The position numbers were made by a program, and so were the translations under genes. The notes beneath the pieces are model-generated. The model made no database searches. It was not told the origin of the DNA and was given only the letters and a program-made list of their open reading frames with translations. A stretch of 44,070 nucleotides of DNA from Thermoflexus hugenholtzii JAD2 (GTDB lineage: Bacteria > Chloroflexota > Chloroflexia > Chloroflexales > Roseiflexaceae). The stretch is taken from positions 1 through 44,070 of the forward strand of contig CAMCVW010000028.1 of NCBI GenBank assembly GCA_945881915.1, written 5' to 3'. Each line of letters starts with the position of its first letter. The stretch's first letter is position 1. Positions 1 to 8,747 of this stretch are shown piece after piece.

Positions 1-1815
1 TCAGTACGATTTATCCGAGTCGGGGCATGGACATATAACAAAATTGGCGCTTCGTTGAACTTCCGCACCAACACAAACGCCGCTATGGCAATTTTGCATG
101 ACGCAGGTCTTGCCTATGCGCAGCAGGTGCAAAATAGCGACTTTGATGACTTCGATGCGGTTGCGTCAAGTGCCGATAAGGCGCTTGCCGACTTTCAATT
201 CTTCTACCTCGAGACACCGGATGTTGGTGTCGACAAAGCCCTACGCATGCAAGACATTGAAATTGCTTCACGGGCAATCATGAACGAGGACCTCTCGCAA
301 AAGTTCCAAATCATCATGGTCAATATCGGTCCTATAGACTGGTTCAAGGGCGTCTTTGTGCGCGTGGGCTACTGGGCCAATGAAGTCGATTTGCAGGCGA
401 CGTATCGTGAGACGTTAGAACAATTGCGGGCCAAGATGACGCGATTGGTAACTCCGAACTATCGAAATATTGTCGAAAAACTGCGTTACGAAGTCCAACC
501 AAATGCATCAATTGTCAGTTGGCAAGTAGAGCGCTTGGTCGAGCAGAAAGAGCCGAGCAAAGCGAAGTCCAAGCTCAGCTCGCTCAGTCCAAACCGCTAT
601 GACGAAGATTCCACAGCAGAGTATATCAAGTCACAAGATTTCATGACCAAATGGACCAAAATGTCGGACTTCCTGCAGGACTATGTCGGTATGCAGGACA
701 AACACGGCTATACATACGATTTCCGCGTTGGGCCTGAGGATCCGCAGTCATCGCTTGATATGGTCGCCTTCGATCAACAGATTGCTCCAAAATATTCCGC
801 TCAGTACATCAACAATGTATATCGGGCACATGACGTGCGTGCAATGGCAATCCGTTTGCTTGCAGGTGGTGGAACCGAGAAGAGTGTCATAGAACGACTC
901 TTCAATCAATGGAATGTAATGGTTCCAAGCATGTTCGATGGGAATAAGGCAGTCGATGCAAAGGTACGCGACAACATAAAATCATTTGTCGAAACCTTCG
1001 TCCTCGTTCGGATGCTCACGTCGGTCGTCGAAAAATCAGATGCACTCATCTCGGATGTTCGAGATTGGTTAGCGGTGATGGTCGACTTCATCAAAAAGCA
1101 ACAAGACGGAATGCCAGCACAGGCTCAGGTTGTTCTGACGAGCAGTGCAGAGCTCACTGATTTGCTCGACACCAAGACATGGATTGCGTCTATACACGAT
1201 ACACTCATTGGCAATCTCCAATCGCCAATGGTGGTCAATAACTTCAAGTCAGCGGTAGTCTGGGGCTCACGTGGACTCACGACGCATGGTTTGCGCCATG
1301 TGATGGGGATACCACAGCAAGCTTCCAGTCAACAAGTCGTTGCTGAACTGAATTCTCGAGCTGGGCGTTTAATGGTCGATAACAAGCCAGAAGAAGCCAA
1401 GTGGTGGCAGGGCCAGGTGTATAGCATCGGCGCCCCTGGGCAATTTGACTTCTCATACCGAGTATTGCCGCCACTACCGCCAGAAGAGTTGTTCGAGATA
1501 ACAGCTGCAAATGACGAATATGCGAAGAATCATGGTTTTGCACCAAACTACATTCAGGCTCCGAATGCCTTTACCGGGCTGAAAATTCTTTCGGTCGAAT
1601 GTGTTCGCAGTCAGCGACAGCTCGTGCCCATCATGTTGGCCCCGCTCCTCAATAGCCTGCAAATCAAAGACTCCGATCGGAACGTCGAGGGGTATATCCA
1701 GCGACTCGCAGGGTCTTCAATCGGTGAACCAATTTATCTCACCGTTGAAATGAATGAACAAATCGGCGGCGGTCGTGTTGACCTTCGCAAGTACTTCATC
1801 ACGGTGGGCGAGTAA
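1..1815 (+). CDS. Large protein of unknown family, 3' part only
   Basis: The reading frame is open from the first base, so the gene starts upstream of the window; 604 residues are visible. A TTG at 55 could serve as a start but has no ribosome binding site, so I treat the gene as 5'-truncated. No catalytic motif or membrane helix is evident. The protein is charged and mostly alpha-helical in the middle, and ends with a compact C-terminal motif, QIGGGRVDLRKYFITVGE. A decayed second copy of this C-terminus lies at 8231-8361. The next gene, a vWA protein, starts 21 bp downstream with a good AGGAG site, which indicates one operon. A speculative possibility is the C-terminal part of a bacterial tubulin-like (Tubulin_2 type) protein, since these are large and often sit near vWA genes. 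The diagnostic N-terminus is outside the window. Confidence 0.8.
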   Translation, partial: SVRFIRVGAWTYNKIGASLNFRTNTNAAMAILHDAGLAYAQQVQNSDFDDFDAVASSADKALADFQFFYLETPDVGVDKALRMQDIEIASRAIMNEDLSQKFQIIMVNIGPIDWFKGVFVRVGYWANEVDLQATYRETLEQLRAKMTRLVTPNYRNIVEKLRYEVQPNASIVSWQVERLVEQKEPSKAKSKLSSLSPNRYDEDSTAEYIKSQDFMTKWTKMSDFLQDYVGMQDKHGYTYDFRVGPEDPQSSLDMVAFDQQIAPKYSAQYINNVYRAHDVRAMAIRLLAGGGTEKSVIERLFNQWNVMVPSMFDGNKAVDAKVRDNIKSFVETFVLVRMLTSVVEKSDALISDVRDWLAVMVDFIKKQQDGMPAQAQVVLTSSAELTDLLDTKTWIASIHDTLIGNLQSPMVVNNFKSAVVWGSRGLTTHGLRHVMGIPQQASSQQVVAELNSRAGRLMVDNKPEEAKWWQGQVYSIGAPGQFDFSYRVLPPLPPEELFEITAANDEYAKNHGFAPNYIQAPNAFTGLKILSVECVRSQRQLVPIMLAPLLNSLQIKDSDRNVEGYIQRLAGSSIGEPIYLTVEMNEQIGGGRVDLRKYFITVGE

Positions 1816-1836
1816 TTAGCACCTAGGAGCAGTTGC

Positions 1837-3411
1837 ATGATTCGGTACATTTTCTTTTTGCTGTCTGTCGTTGCCGGATTCTTCTTGGCACAGTTCGTCG
1901 GCACACAGTTTCTTGTCAATATCATGGCCCAGTGCCAAGGCATGTTGCAGACCTTTACCATAGGGGCCGCAATCCTCGTGTTGGTCTTTGGGTTGTTCTT
2001 CATGCTACGAGAGATGTTCGGGCTTGATGATTCGCTCATTGGCATCGTGTTTTCCGTCGCCGGCGGTGCGGTTGCTACTGCAATTCTTCCTATTGTTTTG
2101 GTGCTCACTGTAGGGCAGCTTGCACCTGTCAAAGCAGTATTTTGCTTCGACTGTGCTCCGCCCAAAAAAGGGGCAGAACTCATCGAAAACGGTGATTTCG
2201 CAGGTGCTCGCGTGCTCCTCGAAAACTTTCTCAAGGATGAAGAGAAGCGACTCGATTCGATGCCAGCCCAGACTCCTGATGCCCTCAAGGAACAAGCGCA
2301 AGGTTGTGTCGGCGATGCCGAAATTCAGCTTGCCCAAGCGTATTTTGAGCTCGCAGCTGCTCCAATTAAGACACTACGGGATCTCCCTTCTCCCGGCACT
2401 GACGATGCAATCACGAGCTGCCAAGAGAAAGTCGCGGAAGCAGGCAAGCTGCTCGACGATGCAAAGAAACTCGCCGAAGAACATACGTTAACCTCATTAC
2501 TCAGCGCAATTGAAGTCCAATCGCAACGTCTCGACGAAGCAGCGCAAAAGTGTAAACCGAGTGTCCTAATTCGAACAGAACACGTCAAAGCATCGAAGGA
2601 AGCACTCACCTTTGATATCCGTTTACTGAAGAACCTCGAGTCAGGTGACACTCCCATCGAGGATGCCAGTGGCGATGTTATTGTACGCAATGACGATACA
2701 TCAATGGATGCTTTTGTCACTGAGCACAAACAAGACGAGCAAGTATGTATGCTGCTGTTGTCGGACTCATCCGGCTCCGTCGGCAAACAAGGTTTGGAGC
2801 AAGTCCGAGCGGCAGTAGACCAACTCAACGGATATCGCAAACCGGCAGATTACTACGGTTTGCTTGCATTCTCGGGCAAAGATTCAATCATTCCCGTTGA
2901 CATGACCAGTCTCGAGCCGATTGATATCGATCTGCTGAATATCAATGGTAAGAGTACATATATCTGGGACGCAGTCGATTCCGGTATACAGAGTATGAGT
3001 ACGTGTAAGCCCGAAATCACGCGCCGTACGTTGGTCCTCTTGACAGATGGCAAGGATAACGGAAGCGAGTTCATGGCCGACGCCGAAGAGGAATCCGCGA
3101 AGGCTACCGCACTACACACTGCAGCGACTGACAACAAAATCGATATCTGTGTTATCGCGGTGACTGCAGGGGCAAAGGAGAATAAAGATTCCTCCAAAGC
3201 ACTGTCAGAGCTTGCAACCGGCTGTGGTTTTCACTATGTCGATGATTTTGAAGGGCTAGCAGCGGAGTTCGCAGATATCTTCGGTGTTTCAGGGCATTAC
3301 TATAGCGTCTCGGTGCCCGCTGCAAAAGTCGGTCGCAAAGAAGATCTGCAGGTCTGCTATACGCCAACCGACGTATGTGCAGAAATTAAAATCCCCGAAT
3401 CCCAAGATTAG
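1837..3411 (+). CDS. Membrane-anchored von Willebrand factor A (vWA) domain protein
   Basis: The 524-residue protein has hydrophobic segments near residues 5-25, 40-57 and 68-92, then a helical, partly coiled-coil linker (about 110-240). A C-terminal vWA domain follows at roughly 303-500. The metal-binding MIDAS residues are intact: D310-S-S-G-S314, T374 (in GKSTYIWDA) and D404 (in LLTDGKD). vWA domains of this kind bind a divalent metal and mediate protein-protein contacts. Which side of the membrane the domain occupies cannot be decided from sequence. The start at 1837 has an AGGAG site about 8 bases upstream. It is the second gene of the operon that ends at the 7511 terminator, with 18 bp to the next gene. 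There is no neighbouring MoxR-type ATPase, so this is not the usual MoxR/vWA pair. Confidence 0.85.
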   Translation: MIRYIFFLLSVVAGFFLAQFVGTQFLVNIMAQCQGMLQTFTIGAAILVLVFGLFFMLREMFGLDDSLIGIVFSVAGGAVATAILPIVLVLTVGQLAPVKAVFCFDCAPPKKGAELIENGDFAGARVLLENFLKDEEKRLDSMPAQTPDALKEQAQGCVGDAEIQLAQAYFELAAAPIKTLRDLPSPGTDDAITSCQEKVAEAGKLLDDAKKLAEEHTLTSLLSAIEVQSQRLDEAAQKCKPSVLIRTEHVKASKEALTFDIRLLKNLESGDTPIEDASGDVIVRNDDTSMDAFVTEHKQDEQVCMLLLSDSSGSVGKQGLEQVRAAVDQLNGYRKPADYYGLLAFSGKDSIIPVDMTSLEPIDIDLLNINGKSTYIWDAVDSGIQSMSTCKPEITRRTLVLLTDGKDNGSEFMADAEEESAKATALHTAATDNKIDICVIAVTAGAKENKDSSKALSELATGCGFHYVDDFEGLAAEFADIFGVSGHYYSVSVPAAKVGRKEDLQVCYTPTDVCAEIKIPESQD

Positions 3412-3429
3412 TAGAGGTGACGGTGATAT

Positions 3430-5844
3430 ATGGCACAACCAACACTCATCCTGTGGGTAGACAGCGTTAACGCAAAAACGCACCAGGAAGAGCGCGTGCG
3501 TTTGCACGCGCTGACCACCGGGGTCACATCCCGCGCACATCGTCTCGTCGAGTCGAAACTCCTCGCTCAAGCAACAATTCGCCCCGAAAACGCAGAACTG
3601 ATTACCGATAGTCTTCCATCCAAAGGTTGGCTCTCGCCAGAACAGATTGTTATCTGGCAACTTTCGGGGCTCATTCCTGCCCAATATCAAGCTCGCGTCT
3701 GTGTGGTCTGTCTCGATCACGAATTAGAGCCAGCGACACTAGACCTTATCTATGCAACAGTGAACCGATATTATGCAGATTTGCAAATTCCCTTTGAGTT
3801 TTCACTGATCTGGTATAAAGCAGATTATGCCTGGACTAAGGGCTCCTGTGCGAATTATTTCCCACGGTATGCAGTCAGTGACAGAGTCACCGATTGGCAA
3901 AATGTCATCGAACATCTGGTTATCGCTTCAATAGATTCCGAGCTGAGTGGATTTATCGCACAGCAAGGTGATGCAGCGGTAGAAGTCGTCTGGTGTGGTG
4001 CGGCTGCGGTTGTTCTTGGGATGGACCTGGCACAACAGACGGTCCTCGAAAACATGTATCGACGCATGATCGAAATTCTGCGCGCCGACGATCTCACCCA
4101 AGAAGAGGTCGATGACTCGAAGCGTGTGGCTGCACAAAATCGCGTCTCCTACGCACGCGACATAATGAAGCTCATTCAAAAGCAAGTCAACGAAAACTTC
4201 GACTTTTCGGTCGAATATACCGTGGATGAGCAATCGGTTGCGCCTGTTGTGCTTGGGACTCCACCCACCCATTCACAAAAGACCAGAACAGCGGGGTTTG
4301 GCATACGCAAGGGTTCCGTACTCGGGAAAACACTCTTCCCAACGCGCGCAAACTGGTGGCTGGCTGGTGATGCAGACTTTTCGGCGACACAAATGCTCAT
4401 GGATCTGTTGCAAAAGGACAGTTCTGTCGAGGTTCACCCGAAGCAAGCAGATATTCTGCCTATGCTTCAGACAAACTTGATACGATTACATGATCGAGTA
4501 ACGGTCGCCGTTCGGGATTCATCGCAAAAGTCACTCGATTCCTTCTTTGCCCAAATCTTTCAACAGATTGAAACACAAAGTAGCTATGGCTTGCGGAATA
4601 TTCAACAGAGTTTGCAGGATTACATTCAGCAAATGGAAACGTCCCACTTGCTTACCTACAAAGGAAAACTCGTTGCAAGTTCCAAGGTAAGCACAACGTC
4701 CTTCTTCACGCAAATCTCTGAAGGAATCCATGCGGAACTGACTGACGGCATGAACCGGATCACCCGTCGCCGTCGCTCTGTATTCAGCCTACCAGGCTCG
4801 GTCATCCGTATGGCCTTGTTGATTCCGTTGTTAAATGGGATTTTTTCGATTGTTGGGCCATCGCAGTACCAAGATATCGCTGCATTTGTCATCCCGCTCA
4901 TCGTTCTCGGAACCGGGATGCTGAGTGCCATTGACTCATATCGCCAATATCATCTCTACGCCCGTCAGGTACGGAATCGTGTGATTGAGGACGTAATCGG
5001 GGGCGCAGTCATTGAAGTCATCGAATCGGTGTTCATTCGTGAACGCGATCGCGTGCTCTCGCACCTGCGGCACCTCAACAGCATCTACATCGATCTCATC
5101 GACTCGTATGATCATACGCACGCAGAGCAGGTAAAACCGAACGATATCATAACGTCGAATGCATGGATTCTGCAGCAAATTGACACCGTCTGGGGCGAAA
5201 CAAAAAAACTCGTGAACTCAGATGCAGATAATCTCGGGGATTGGGATTTGATCATCGGTGAAGAAGTTACCACGTATCAAATCGATGGCCAAACGCGCTT
5301 GAGCCTTCAATCTGCGACACAGGTTGAAGTGAACCGCGACGCTCGGGGCAAAGGGCTCTATCGCGGGAGTGTATTGCTTTTGCAGCAAGTTGCCGAACAA
5401 TTGCGCCGCAGACCTTTGACAAAGCAGAGTGTTGAAACTCGTATGCGTAACTTCTGCAGTCTGTATGTCAAACGGGTATTCGAAAATCCCATGAATAAGT
5501 TGCATTTGCTCTACGAAATCAACCGTTCAGCAAGTGTCGTAATGCCGTCCACGGGCACACGACTGAATCGGACCACAATGCTCGGTGAAGGAAAACATTG
5601 GGTGTGGCTCAACACTGCGGCAAATCAAAATGCGACGCCACGTGCTGATACCCCTGCATCTACCAAAAGTATGTCCGTCTTGTTAGTACCGTCTTTTCTC
5701 CAAGGATCGCTCGAGGGACGCTACGGGAAACCGAATCCGAATTGGATTGAACCAAGCGCAATTGTCCCCACATCAAAAGCGTTCGATGAAGAGATTATCC
5801 AGGTCCGCATGGACATCGATTTTGATGAAGTGAGCACAATATGA
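3430..5844 (+). CDS. 804-residue protein of unknown function with a central membrane hairpin
   Basis: I do not recognise this family. The first ~450 residues are soluble-looking. Residues 365-440 are helical and glutamine-rich, suggesting a coiled coil, and are followed by a basic patch (TRRRRS near 445-450). Two hydrophobic segments follow near 460-476 and 482-500, forming a hairpin. The C-terminal ~300 residues are again soluble, so both ends should lie on the same side, probably the cytoplasm. The start is preceded by AGAGGTGA. The stop codon overlaps the start of the next membrane protein in an ATGA arrangement (5841-5844), which implies translational coupling and perhaps a shared complex. 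Its length, the coiled coil and the hairpin suggest a scaffold, but that is inference. Confidence 0.75.
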   Translation: MAQPTLILWVDSVNAKTHQEERVRLHALTTGVTSRAHRLVESKLLAQATIRPENAELITDSLPSKGWLSPEQIVIWQLSGLIPAQYQARVCVVCLDHELEPATLDLIYATVNRYYADLQIPFEFSLIWYKADYAWTKGSCANYFPRYAVSDRVTDWQNVIEHLVIASIDSELSGFIAQQGDAAVEVVWCGAAAVVLGMDLAQQTVLENMYRRMIEILRADDLTQEEVDDSKRVAAQNRVSYARDIMKLIQKQVNENFDFSVEYTVDEQSVAPVVLGTPPTHSQKTRTAGFGIRKGSVLGKTLFPTRANWWLAGDADFSATQMLMDLLQKDSSVEVHPKQADILPMLQTNLIRLHDRVTVAVRDSSQKSLDSFFAQIFQQIETQSSYGLRNIQQSLQDYIQQMETSHLLTYKGKLVASSKVSTTSFFTQISEGIHAELTDGMNRITRRRRSVFSLPGSVIRMALLIPLLNGIFSIVGPSQYQDIAAFVIPLIVLGTGMLSAIDSYRQYHLYARQVRNRVIEDVIGGAVIEVIESVFIRERDRVLSHLRHLNSIYIDLIDSYDHTHAEQVKPNDIITSNAWILQQIDTVWGETKKLVNSDADNLGDWDLIIGEEVTTYQIDGQTRLSLQSATQVEVNRDARGKGLYRGSVLLLQQVAEQLRRRPLTKQSVETRMRNFCSLYVKRVFENPMNKLHLLYEINRSASVVMPSTGTRLNRTTMLGEGKHWVWLNTAANQNATPRADTPASTKSMSVLLVPSFLQGSLEGRYGKPNPNWIEPSAIVPTSKAFDEEIIQVRMDIDFDEVSTI

Positions 5845-6491
5845 TTTTGTTACTTCTTTTTCTCCTCAGTCTCTTTGTTTGGCTTGGTGCTCGCCTGTTT
5901 GAGGTACGCAATCACTGGACGGACATCGTTTCGCAGATCACGATTCCCATCGGAGGCGAATTGGAGAAATTCATCATCCCAGGAATCGGCCTCGTGATTT
6001 TTGTCGCTGTGGGGATTGGTATTTTGTATGTGACCAATCTCTTGTTGCAATCAATATATGCAGCTCTCGTGAGCCAAATTCATCTCAAAGATCAGACGCA
6101 GAAGCTACCCATACAACTCGTTGGTGCTTCTGTCCACACCGATGCAATGAACGAAAACATCGAACCGGTCGTCGCGTGGTTGCCGTTACGCCTCGCGAAG
6201 TGGGTCATCGGGTTCTTTGTCTACAAACTCATCCTCGCGCTGATTATTTTTGTGCTGGCTGTCGTCATTCCTATTATCGCGAATGCACTGGGTGCAGCCG
6301 AAACGGGGAGAATGATCGCCGAAATTCTCAAGGAAGTCTGTTTCACTATTTTGCGATATGCAATGAATGTCAATGGTATGGTTATCTTCGGTTACTCCAT
6401 TCTCGTTGTCTACGCATATTCACTCTATAAGATCGAGCGCATCTTTATCCGAGATTATGCAATTATGCAGAAGCAGATTGCCAACAGATAG
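5841..6491 (+). CDS. Small integral membrane protein, four predicted helices
   Basis: The 216-residue protein has about four strongly hydrophobic segments (near 1-20, 45-70, 118-150 and 165-195). They are separated by short polar stretches including a polar region at about 75-115. The family is not recognised and no transporter signature is visible. The start overlaps the stop of the preceding 804-residue gene by four bases. The SPFH-like gene starts 8 bp after its stop. Coupling on both sides suggests that it is the membrane platform for the operon's complex. Confidence 0.75.
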   Translation: MILLLLFLLSLFVWLGARLFEVRNHWTDIVSQITIPIGGELEKFIIPGIGLVIFVAVGIGILYVTNLLLQSIYAALVSQIHLKDQTQKLPIQLVGASVHTDAMNENIEPVVAWLPLRLAKWVIGFFVYKLILALIIFVLAVVIPIIANALGAAETGRMIAEILKEVCFTILRYAMNVNGMVIFGYSILVVYAYSLYKIERIFIRDYAIMQKQIANR

Positions 6492-6499
6492 GAGATTCA

Positions 6500-7498
6500 A
6501 TGTTTTCTGTATCGAACAGCAGCTTCAACGTGGTTGCAAAAGCAACAAATATTGGTGGTGAAGGTAGACCTGGCTATGCGGGACGAAAAATTGTCGTCGA
6601 GCCTGGTCAAATCTATGTGTTTATGACAGGCATTATGGACCAGAATGGCTTGCACGAAACCTATCGCGGCGGCGAGATTATCTATGTTTCCGACACCGCA
6701 GATATGAAGTCTCGCAAATTCGTTGCACTCAACGAACGTGCTGCGGAACTCACCATCGTTGGTGAACGCAATATCCTCGGTATCACCACGTCTTCTGACA
6801 AAGCAACCATCACGGTGCGCCTCTCGTTGACCGTGAAAGACCCAGTAAGACTGGCAACACTGTATAATTCTGCGTCTGATTTTGACAATGACCTTCGTGT
6901 GAAGGTCGAAAGTGCGGTCTTGTATTACATTGAAAACACTCTGGCCATTTGGAGTCAACCAGAGCACGAGCTCATCAACATCATCGCGACACGCATCAAC
7001 ACGCAGGTAGAAAACTACGGTTTGACGCTCCTGCATGCGAATACCTTGGTGCAACGTACGATGCCCAAAGCGCTCGACGCAGTGCAGGCAGAAGCACGTA
7101 TGGCGGATCTGCGCCTACTCGAAGCAATTGAGGCAAAAGAAAACGGCTCTGCAGCAGATGCGTTGCATGAGTTCGATAGCAAATTTGAACGAAGTATCTT
7201 TACATCACAGCGTATCGAAGAGTGGCTTGCGACTGCACAGGGAGGCAACAAATCAAACCATGGGAAGGCTTTCTTGCAACTCGTCGTTGCAAGTGCAACC
7301 ATGGGTGTCACTGGTGTCCCTGCAAGCGACGATTTGAACCTCAAACAGGCAGAGATGCTCAATTCCTTTATGCTCGAAGGCTTCCAGGCAGTGGCAATCT
7401 CAAAGTACATCAAGTCGCTACGCGGTGACCAAATAAACATCCCCAGCCAGGAGCAGATTCAAGATTCTGTTGAGGTTGTTATCAATAGCTTTGTGTGA
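6500..7498 (+). CDS. SPFH/band-7-like domain protein without a membrane anchor
   Basis: The 332-residue protein resembles SPFH (stomatin/prohibitin/flotillin) proteins. It has an N-terminal beta-rich part (about 15-110) with VEPGQIYVFMTG and GGEIIYVSDTADM. A segment of the type ATITVRLSLTVKDPVRLATLY follows, as in the band-7 core, and then a long alpha-helical part with alanine- and glutamate-rich helices (about 185-245). Band-7 proteins oligomerise into rings or cages, usually on membranes. Here the usual N-terminal hydrophobic anchor is missing, so recruitment by the neighbouring membrane proteins is plausible. GGAGA lies at a suitable distance before the start. It is the last gene before the strong terminator at 7511. 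The family call is from pattern recognition and is moderately sure. Confidence 0.7.
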   Translation: MFSVSNSSFNVVAKATNIGGEGRPGYAGRKIVVEPGQIYVFMTGIMDQNGLHETYRGGEIIYVSDTADMKSRKFVALNERAAELTIVGERNILGITTSSDKATITVRLSLTVKDPVRLATLYNSASDFDNDLRVKVESAVLYYIENTLAIWSQPEHELINIIATRINTQVENYGLTLLHANTLVQRTMPKALDAVQAEARMADLRLLEAIEAKENGSAADALHEFDSKFERSIFTSQRIEEWLATAQGGNKSNHGKAFLQLVVASATMGVTGVPASDDLNLKQAEMLNSFMLEGFQAVAISKYIKSLRGDQINIPSQEQIQDSVEVVINSFV

Positions 7499-7510
7499 TG
7501 CTCATACGAG

Positions 7511-7547
7511 AGCCACTGTCTGCAACATCGCAGACAGTGGCTTTTTT
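7511..7547 (+). terminator. Rho-independent terminator of the vWA/SPFH operon
   Basis: A perfect 12-bp inverted repeat (AGCCACTGTCTG / CAGACAGTGGCT, arms 7511-7522 and 7531-7542) with an 8-base loop is followed by a T run to 7546. It lies 12 bp after the last stop of the operon. Confidence 0.93.
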
Positions 7548-7578: not shown

Positions 7579-8172
7579 TTAGTCATTCACAATCACAATG
7601 TCGTAGTCACTCAAATAGAGGAAACACGCTTGCCCAATAGACATCACACTATGAATGTCCTTGTCACGTTTTTGGCCTTTTGACGCACCGTAGATAATAT
7701 TGTAAGACTGTGAGTAGTTACGCTCATCATTTGCCAAATTGTACGAAACTTCAATGTTGAAGTCACGTTTGTTTGTCCAAATTGCTTCGTTCGTTACAAC
7801 ATCCGTTATTGTGACACCTGGTTGTCGATTGATATATTCACGCAAAAATGGACCGACGTCGTCCGCAGTTTTGAGACTTTGGAATTCTTCATCGGTCATT
7901 GGATTTTTGCACACCGCCGAACGTAGTTTGGATTCAAGTTTTGTGACCGTTACCTTCTTGTCTTCGACTTCTCGATTCAGATCTGTCACATCACGCCCGA
8001 GGTCTTTGACCTTTGCTTCGAGGGTGACGACCGACACCTTGAGTACATTTGCAGCGTCGCGTAGCAGGGTATTATTGCCGACGAGATCATAAAGCCAAAA
8101 CACCAGGAACGCATTGACGAGAAAACTCGCGAAAATGATGAACCGTTTCAAGAACCGATAGCTGTTGCGCAT
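7579..8172 (-). CDS. Single-pass membrane protein with a coiled coil, unknown function
   Basis: From the start at 8172, chosen because AGAGGGA precedes it, the product is 197 residues. The frame extends upstream to 8238 but without a ribosome site. A short basic N-terminus (MRNSYRFLKR) leads into one hydrophobic helix (about residues 10-30). A heptad-like coiled coil rich in Val, Leu, Lys and Asp follows (about 35-80), and then a soluble C-terminal domain of about 110 residues. The topology is N-in with the coiled coil outside. The gene is convergent with the vWA/SPFH operon, sits between it and the relic of that operon's first gene, and may belong to the same locus. I do not recognise the family. 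Confidence 0.7.
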   Translation of the reverse strand: MRNSYRFLKRFIIFASFLVNAFLVFWLYDLVGNNTLLRDAANVLKVSVVTLEAKVKDLGRDVTDLNREVEDKKVTVTKLESKLRSAVCKNPMTDEEFQSLKTADDVGPFLREYINRQPGVTITDVVTNEAIWTNKRDFNIEVSYNLANDERNYSQSYNIIYGASKGQKRDKDIHSVMSIGQACFLYLSDYDIVIVND

Positions 8173-8230
8173 GTTGTTCCCTCTTACGTAAATTACTATG
8201 GGATTGTATCCTATCATATTTATGGATTGA

Positions 8231-8361
8231 TATGGCAATGATGTGATTTACGTCACCGTACTGATCTACCTCCCGATGCCCTACATTCCCGTATCACCGT
8301 TGGCAAAGTAGACCTGCGCAACTATATCTGCACCGTTGGGCCAGACCAGCCCGTTGTGTAA
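8231..8361 (+). pseudogene. Decayed 3' fragment of a paralogue of the first operon gene
   Basis: The plus strand reads NDVIYVTVLIYLP in one frame up to about 8275, then continues after a one-base shift as DALHSRITVGKVDLRNY and ICTVGPDQPVV, ending in TAA at 8359-8361. The gene at 1-1815 ends in EPIYLTV, then GGGRVDLRKYFITVGE. The shared VDLR(N/K)Y-x-x-TVG motif, the matching IY(V/L)TV segment and the stop just after it identify this as the C-terminal remnant of a related gene. An in-frame TGA at 8228-8230 closes it upstream, and the minus-strand gene begins 59 bp away. The match is seen in the sequence; the deletion or rearrangement history is inferred. Confidence 0.7.
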
Positions 8362-8443
8362 CCCCCCAATTCTCACACCTCTATCAGTTAAAAATGAATT
8401 AAATGAATCTAACCAAAACAGGGCGAAAAGCTCTGTTATTCTA

Positions 8444-8471
8444 TTGACAAATTTTTCACAATGTCTATACT
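8444..8471 (+). promoter_or_regulatory. Strong sigma70-type promoter upstream of the DoxX-like gene
   Basis: TTGACA (8444-8449) and TATACT (8466-8471) are separated by 16 bp. The -35 box is a perfect consensus and the -10 box matches five of six. Transcription would start near 8478, leaving about 270 nt of leader before the DoxX-like gene at 8748. Confidence 0.75.
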
Positions 8472-8477
8472 GACGGC

Positions 8478-8747
8478 AGTTGGGGGTAGCGCGATATGGA
8501 GTACTCACGACGCACCCCAACGAATCCTGCACAGGGGTGCAGGTGAATCACGTGGATGATGTTGCATAGAAAAGCAAAAATGCACGCCACAGTTGATTCC
8601 GGTGTCGTACCGTATGGACATGGTCATCTGCGCTGACGGGATTTGGCAATGCAGAATACTCCCGTTCCGCCCGATGCCCCAGCCTACGTGGTACGCATAA
8701 TTGTTCGCGAGTGTCTTCATATTCACGAACGCAGAAGGAGCCCCCGT
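8478..8747 (+). other. Long untranslated leader with a hairpin
   Basis: About 270 nt lie between the predicted transcription start and the gene. They contain a perfect 7-bp inverted repeat with a 4-base loop (CCTGCAC AGGG GTGCAGG, 8526-8543) but no T run after it. An upstream in-frame extension from 8643 exists but lacks a ribosome site. I recognise no known riboswitch class here. Confidence 0.4.

What the first reader, a model, noticed from the sequence alone, without database searches (positions are those of the whole stretch)
1..7547. Five-gene vWA / SPFH / membrane-protein operon not matching a system I know
Seen directly: tight spacing, one ATGA overlap, good ribosome sites and a single strong terminator tie five genes together. 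Domains: a large unknown protein, a membrane vWA protein with intact MIDAS, an 804-residue protein with a coiled coil and membrane hairpin, a four-helix protein and an anchorless SPFH-like protein. Known knowledge: SPFH proteins build membrane rings or cages and vWA domains mediate metal-dependent contacts. Inference: the set builds a membrane-associated complex, perhaps a stress, compartment or defence device; a tubulin-like partner may be upstream.
Basis: partly seen in the sequence, partly recalled or inferred. Interest (0 to 1): 0.72.

Follow-up and report, generated by a model that had tools for sequence, protein, structure and literature searches.

The report
Fast-evolving membrane vWA–SPFH gene set
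This is a real five-gene operon for a membrane complex, known only from one genus of Roseiflexaceae bacteria; it sits at a chromosomal spot where a sister species carries a tubulin-like/vWA operon, so it is probably a far-diverged or substitute version of that poorly understood system.

Summary
The operon is real: five same-strand genes, one ATGA overlap, ribosome sites, a strong terminator. Gene 1 is cut by the contig edge, so the full set is unknown. Gene 5 is an SPFH protein (fold match to prohibitin, flotillin, stomatin, HflKC); gene 2 has an intact vWA MIDAS. Relatives of genes 1, 3, 4 and 5 were found only in the same genus (UBA965, Roseiflexaceae): genes 3–5 in one genome (22–27% identity, although the neighbouring doxX is 97% identical) and gene 1 in another, plus decayed gene 1 ends beside doxX in three.

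In a sister genome the same site holds a Tubulin_2 (FtsZl1)/vWA operon; at a second site a gene-1 relative and a Tubulin_2 operon share a downstream flank. Many Chloroflexota Tubulin_2 operons run vWA – tubulin – large protein with central membrane hairpin – small polytopic protein; window genes 3 and 4 match the last two in order, size and topology, but sequence homology is only suggestive. No Tubulin_2 domain occurs in this 98.6%-complete genome, so it cannot be filed as a member.

Best reading: a fast-turning-over variant or substitute of the Tubulin_2/vWA membrane system, with an SPFH scaffold inside and a vWA sensor outside. Function is inferred, not shown.

The parts
1..1815 (+). Gene 1: 3' part (604 aa) of a soluble protein, 5' end lost at the contig edge
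   Evidence: open at 5' side; window starts at contig base 1; relative in G010 at 25% identity and decayed ends in G001 and G008; only same-genus relatives credible among 158 class genomes
1837..3411 (+). Gene 2: 524 aa, three N-terminal membrane helices and C-terminal vWA domain with intact MIDAS
   Evidence: Pfam VWA E 1e-8; helices at residues 5-23, 39-57, 74-92; DSSGS at 310 and TDG at 403
2764..2778 (+). MIDAS DSSGS codons of gene 2
3430..5844 (+). Gene 3: 804 aa with central membrane hairpin; diverged homologue in G001
   Evidence: counterpart by order and topology of the second large protein (T2) of Chloroflexota Tubulin_2 operons; weak profile signal
4801..4932 (+). Membrane hairpin of gene 3 (residues 458-501)
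5841..6491 (+). Gene 4: 216 aa, four membrane helices; overlaps gene 3 by ATGA
6500..7498 (+). Gene 5: 332 aa SPFH protein without membrane anchor
   Evidence: AF2 model with two sequences, Foldseek and VIA leading matches SPFH; homologue in G001
6587..7150 (+). SPFH region of gene 5 (residues 30-217)
   Evidence: prohibitin 9o9z_A Z 9.9, rmsd 4.9, 155 aligned, residues 32-217
7509..7547 (+). Intrinsic terminator closing the operon
   Evidence: z -7.7
8281..8340 (+). Decayed remnant of a gene 1 C-terminus (LHSRITVGKVDLRNYICTVG) beside doxX; scar of an older copy
   Evidence: tblastn 50% over 20 aa, E 0.015 in a small search; DNA 8264-8484 is 76% identical to the G001 stretch that carries the clearer remnant

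Best explanation
The operon encodes a membrane-anchored complex that is a fast-diverging variant of, or site-for-site substitute for, the Tubulin_2 (FtsZl1)/vWA membrane systems of Chloroflexota. Shown: five linked genes; vWA with intact MIDAS; SPFH fold of gene 5; conserved gene 3-4-5 block in a second genome; occupation of the chromosomal site that holds a Tubulin_2/vWA operon in a sister genome; repeated turnover at that site (decayed gene 1 ends, strongly diverged operon beside conserved flanks). Inferred: the gene 2 vWA domain faces outside (three N-terminal helices, N-in) and makes metal-dependent contacts; gene 3, anchored by its hairpin with both large domains inside, and the four-helix gene 4 form the membrane platform; the anchorless SPFH protein assembles a ring or cage on the cytoplasmic face and, with gene 1, takes the scaffold role that tubulin-like filaments are thought to play in the sister operons, so that binding outside reorganises the membrane inside. 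The rapid divergence suggests that the partner recognised outside changes quickly (phage, predator or kin).
For: Same site: window order g1..g5 - doxX - FAD oxidoreductase - hrcA - grpE; G007 order vWA(1171) - Tubulin_2(1056) - 1032 aa - 359 aa membrane protein - doxX - FAD oxidoreductase - hrcA - grpE - dnaK. The far flank agrees too: the gene beyond the G007 operon has its orthologue at the very start of own contig C22, facing the gap. Second site: the gene 1 relative of G010 and the Tubulin_2 operon of G002 are each followed by the same 183-aa reverse gene, 87% identical. Gene-order match: in Chloroflexota Tubulin_2 operons the tubulin gene is often followed by a 750-960 aa protein with one or two central hydrophobic stretches and then a 140-250 aa protein with 3-5 helices (L114-L116, L118-L122); window genes 3 and 4 have this order, size and topology. 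The second large protein is itself a diverged tubulin-like protein (hhalign E 1e-10 to 2e-15). Gene 3 against that family: best raw score of the non-tubulin proteins tested, at a collinear place just after the hairpin (32.3 with two sequences, 25.7 alone, controls up to 24.6). SPFH fold. Divergence: doxX 97%, FAD oxidoreductase 76%, genes 3-5 22-27% between G000 and G001. G+C of the operon 0.46-0.50 against 0.57-0.59 in its flank, as for the G007 operon (0.48-0.52 against 0.55-0.56).
Against: No Tubulin_2 domain in own genome at E<=0.001. Gene 1 shows no profile similarity to the tubulin families. The gene 3 signal (E 0.003-0.04 depending on the alignment, short stretch) is not significant alone. 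No SPFH protein was found in the Tubulin_2 operons looked at (one search tested ten proteins). vWA architecture differs: N-terminal helices and C-terminal vWA here, signal peptide and C-terminal helix there. Sharing a site can be mere hotspot behaviour.
Confidence: 0.5

Rival explanations
1. An independent SPFH-vWA membrane microdomain or stress complex, unrelated in descent to the Tubulin_2 system; the two merely use the same variable chromosomal spot beside doxX.
For: No significant sequence link between genes 1, 3, 4 and the tubulin operon proteins; Tubulin_2 absent from own genome; SPFH protein is an extra not seen in tubulin operons; operon G+C is low, as expected of inserted cargo.
Against: Agreement at two sites, order vWA - hairpin protein - small polytopic protein, and gene 3 scoring above all controls against the hairpin protein family.
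Confidence: 0.3
2. An anti-phage or inter-bacterial conflict system: an outside-facing vWA sensor and a cytoplasmic SPFH/gene 1 effector assembly, kept diverse by an arms race.
For: Extreme divergence beside conserved flanks and remnants of older copies; in the same genus Tubulin_2 and gene 1 loci lie within 10 kb of cas6e and, in one case, a HerA/TraG-type ATPase; tubulin/vWA gene sets are classed among predicted conflict systems in PMC7159879.
Against: No PADLOC match above chance for any of the five or for the G007 operon; the site lies among chaperone and housekeeping genes; no phage or plasmid relatives of the genes tested; no toxic effector domain recognised.
Confidence: 0.15
3. Decaying leftover: a horizontally acquired set on its way out, with no current function.
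For: Patchy presence, low G+C, decayed gene 1 ends at the site.
Against: All five frames are open with tight spacing, ribosome sites, intact MIDAS and a strong terminator; genes 4-5 and the held part of gene 3 stay open and ordered in G001 at 22-27% identity.
Confidence: 0.05

Closest known systems
FtsZl1 (Pfam Tubulin_2, PF13809)/vWA predicted membrane-remodelling systems (Makarova and Koonin 2010, PMC2875224)
   Same: vWA protein with intact MIDAS and membrane helices, large hairpin protein followed by small polytopic protein, same chromosomal site within the genus
   Different: no Tubulin_2 domain found, extra SPFH protein, gene 1 of no known family, no kinase or GTPase
SPFH/Band 7 proteins (prohibitin, flotillin, stomatin, HflKC)
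   Same: fold of gene 5 residues 30-217
   Different: no membrane anchor, no Pfam-level similarity, partners are vWA and membrane proteins, not FtsH or NfeD
GTPase- and MoxR-vWA-centred conflict systems of multicellular bacteria (Kaur et al. 2020, PMC7159879)
   Same: vWA proteins with several membrane helices and vWA outside, in operons with tubulin-like proteins, in Chloroflexi among others
   Different: no MoxR ATPase, TRAFAC GTPase, HSP70 or recognised effector in the window operon

Membership tests
FtsZl1 (Tubulin_2)/vWA system | a Tubulin_2 GTPase-like protein in the operon | tested here: not met
   PF13809 finds nothing in own genome at E<=0.001; gene 1 lacks its N-terminal part and the assembly gap is unread, genome 98.6% complete
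FtsZl1 (Tubulin_2)/vWA system | membrane or secreted vWA protein with intact MIDAS | tested here: met
FtsZl1 (Tubulin_2)/vWA system | Chloroflexota pattern: large hairpin protein (T2) then small polytopic protein | tested here: inconclusive
   order, size and topology match; profile similarity weak
FtsZl1 (Tubulin_2)/vWA system | genomic site shared with a bona fide member | tested here: met
   G007 and G000 share the site; G010 and G002 share a flank at a second site
SPFH/Band 7 | SPFH1/SPFH2 fold followed by a helical region | tested here: met
   model confidence is low (pLDDT 44.6) but the leading matches are nearly all SPFH
SPFH/Band 7 | Pfam Band_7 sequence match | tested here: not met
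   no match at E<1; very diverged, so the fold is claimed and not subfamily membership
MoxR-vWA or GTPase-centred conflict system | MoxR AAA+ ATPase or TRAFAC GTPase next to the vWA gene | tested here: not met
   no such domain in genes 1-5; region upstream of gene 1 not read
Known anti-phage systems (PADLOC) | match to a system model | tested here: not met
   best 0.024 on a vWA stretch

The most novel reading that the evidence does not exclude
A genus-restricted, arms-race-driven surface-recognition system in which an SPFH ring plus a new large protein has replaced tubulin-like filaments as the cytoplasmic half of a vWA membrane complex, whole versions being exchanged at fixed chromosomal sites.
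Probability: 0.22. Interest if true: 0.75.

Novelty: new variant of a known kind. Interest (0 to 1): 0.46.

Why it matters
The FtsZl1/vWA systems have been predicted since 2010 to remodel membranes; the searches run here turned up no experimental work on them, though the literature was not searched exhaustively. Two alternative operons at one site in one genus, one with tubulin-like proteins and one with an SPFH protein, offer a natural comparison for what the cytoplasmic scaffold does. Divergence to 22-27% beside a 97% identical neighbour suggests recognition of something that changes fast.

Tried and rejected
Sequence libraries (Pfam, NCBIfam, PADLOC, PHROGs) gave only vWA. Gene 1 as the C-terminal part of a tubulin-like protein: profile comparison with 26 such proteins gave nothing. 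AF2 of the gene 3 N-terminal 260 residues from one sequence was unusable (pLDDT 38.8), so its fold stays untested. Small families gave no power in the first profile test. Mobile origin: plasmid searches with genes 1 and 3 and phage/viral searches with gene 5 found nothing. Wider relatives: gene 5 and gene 3 profiles over 400 phylum genomes and gene 1 over 158 class genomes gave none outside the genus; the marginal hits in G072 and G024 sit in unrelated surroundings. Genome-contig scans returned only the G010 contig, which names the genus (Roseiflexaceae UBA965). Contig breaks at the site in four of five genomes were considered as a sign of hypervariability and dropped: three of those assemblies have contigs of only about 5 kb on average.

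Full report
Observation. The window is the first 44,070 bases of contig C28 of a 3.09 Mb, 98.6% complete assembly. Five plus-strand ORFs follow each other with gaps of 21, 18, -4 and 8 bases, with ribosome-site-like sequences before genes 2, 3 and 5 and an ATGA overlap between genes 3 and 4. A terminator at 7509-7547 closes the operon. Gene 1 runs off the contig start, so its N-terminus and anything before it are unknown.

Products. Gene 2 has three N-terminal membrane helices and a vWA domain with intact MIDAS. Gene 3 has a central membrane hairpin (458-501), gene 4 four helices, genes 1 and 5 none. Gene 5 has no Pfam match, but a two-sequence AF2 model of low confidence gives SPFH proteins as nearly all its leading matches: prohibitin, flotillin, stomatin, HflKC and the vault shoulder (prohibitin Z 9.9, rmsd 4.9, 155 aligned). 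This fits the recognisable SPFH pattern in the sequence.

Relatives. Genes 3, 4 and 5 have diverged homologues in the same order in one genome of the same genus, G001. Gene 1 has a relative in G010 (25%). Decayed C-terminal ends of gene 1 lie beside doxX in G001, in G008 and, faintly, in the window itself. Nothing credible was found outside the genus in 158 class genomes (gene 1) or 400 phylum genomes (genes 3 and 5). A contig title names the genus: Roseiflexaceae UBA965.

The site. In G007 the same place, between doxX/FAD oxidoreductase/hrcA/grpE/dnaK and a membrane glycosyltransferase-like gene, holds vWA - Tubulin_2 - 1032 aa - 359 aa. The orthologue of the far flanking gene begins own contig C22, facing the gap, so own C22 and C28 most likely flank the same site. 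At another place the gene 1 relative of G010 and the Tubulin_2 operon of G002 share a downstream reverse gene, 87% identical. Between own genome and G001, doxX is 97% identical, the FAD oxidoreductase 76%, but genes 3-5 only 22-27%. The operon is lower in G+C than its flank, as is the G007 operon.

Comparison with Tubulin_2 operons. A survey found PF13809 in 45 of 400 phylum genomes. In twenty neighbourhoods read, many run vWA - Tubulin_2 - a large protein with one or two central hydrophobic stretches - a small polytopic protein. The large protein is itself tubulin-like at its N-terminus (hhalign E 1e-10 to 2e-15). Window genes 3 and 4 match the last two in order, size and topology. Gene 3 scores highest of the non-tubulin proteins tested against this family, at a collinear place after the hairpin (32.3 with two sequences, 25.7 alone, best control 24.6), but E-values of 0.003-0.04 over a short stretch do not prove homology. 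Gene 1 shows no such link. Tubulin_2 is absent from the own assembly. The operon is therefore not filed as a member; 'works like' remains the better-supported claim.

Mechanism. Inferred: vWA outside (N-in, three helices, cysteines after the third), gene 3 and gene 4 in the membrane, SPFH assembly and gene 1 inside. Makarova and Koonin 2010 (PMC2875224) propose membrane remodelling for the tubulin relatives; Kaur et al. 2020 (PMC7159879) place vWA/tubulin sets among predicted conflict systems and describe a vWA protein with several membrane helices and vWA outside. Neither paper reports an experiment in the parts read here. The turnover at the site favours recognition of a changing partner, but defence is not shown.

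Noticed in passing
window 7579-8238 (-): Reverse-strand 219-aa protein with one N-terminal membrane helix and a coiled coil, G+C 0.43, lowest of the region; no family found. It lies between the operon terminator and the gene 1 remnant and is not seen in G001.
   Followed up: partly
L014:3708-4523 and L074:9149-9937: cas6e-like genes (Pfam CRISPR_assoc E 1e-37) directly before the Tubulin_2/vWA operon of G002 and about 7.5 kb from the gene 1 relative in G010.
   Followed up: partly
L074:4608-8861 (-): 1417-aa protein joining a HerA/TraG-type ATPase, RCC1-like repeats and an RNA polymerase alpha-CTD-like segment; PADLOC mad8 E 7e-17.
   Followed up: no
L014:2-2050: In G002 the C-terminal part of a second vWA protein (27% identical to that of G007) lies before the complete Tubulin_2 operon, another sign of tandem copies.
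   Followed up: partly
L016:4299-14840: A 3513-aa protein in G056 with two Tubulin_2 domains in one frame.
   Followed up: no
window 1-45 and 352-390: Gene 1 holds the motif (I/V)RVGxW twice about 115 residues apart (residues 5-10 and 120-125), as if built from repeats; the second copy is conserved in G010.
   Followed up: no
L015:2919-5654 (-) and L115:681-3095 (-): Other Chloroflexota Tubulin_2 operons include a HerA-like ATPase or an AAA+ ATPase downstream.
   Followed up: no
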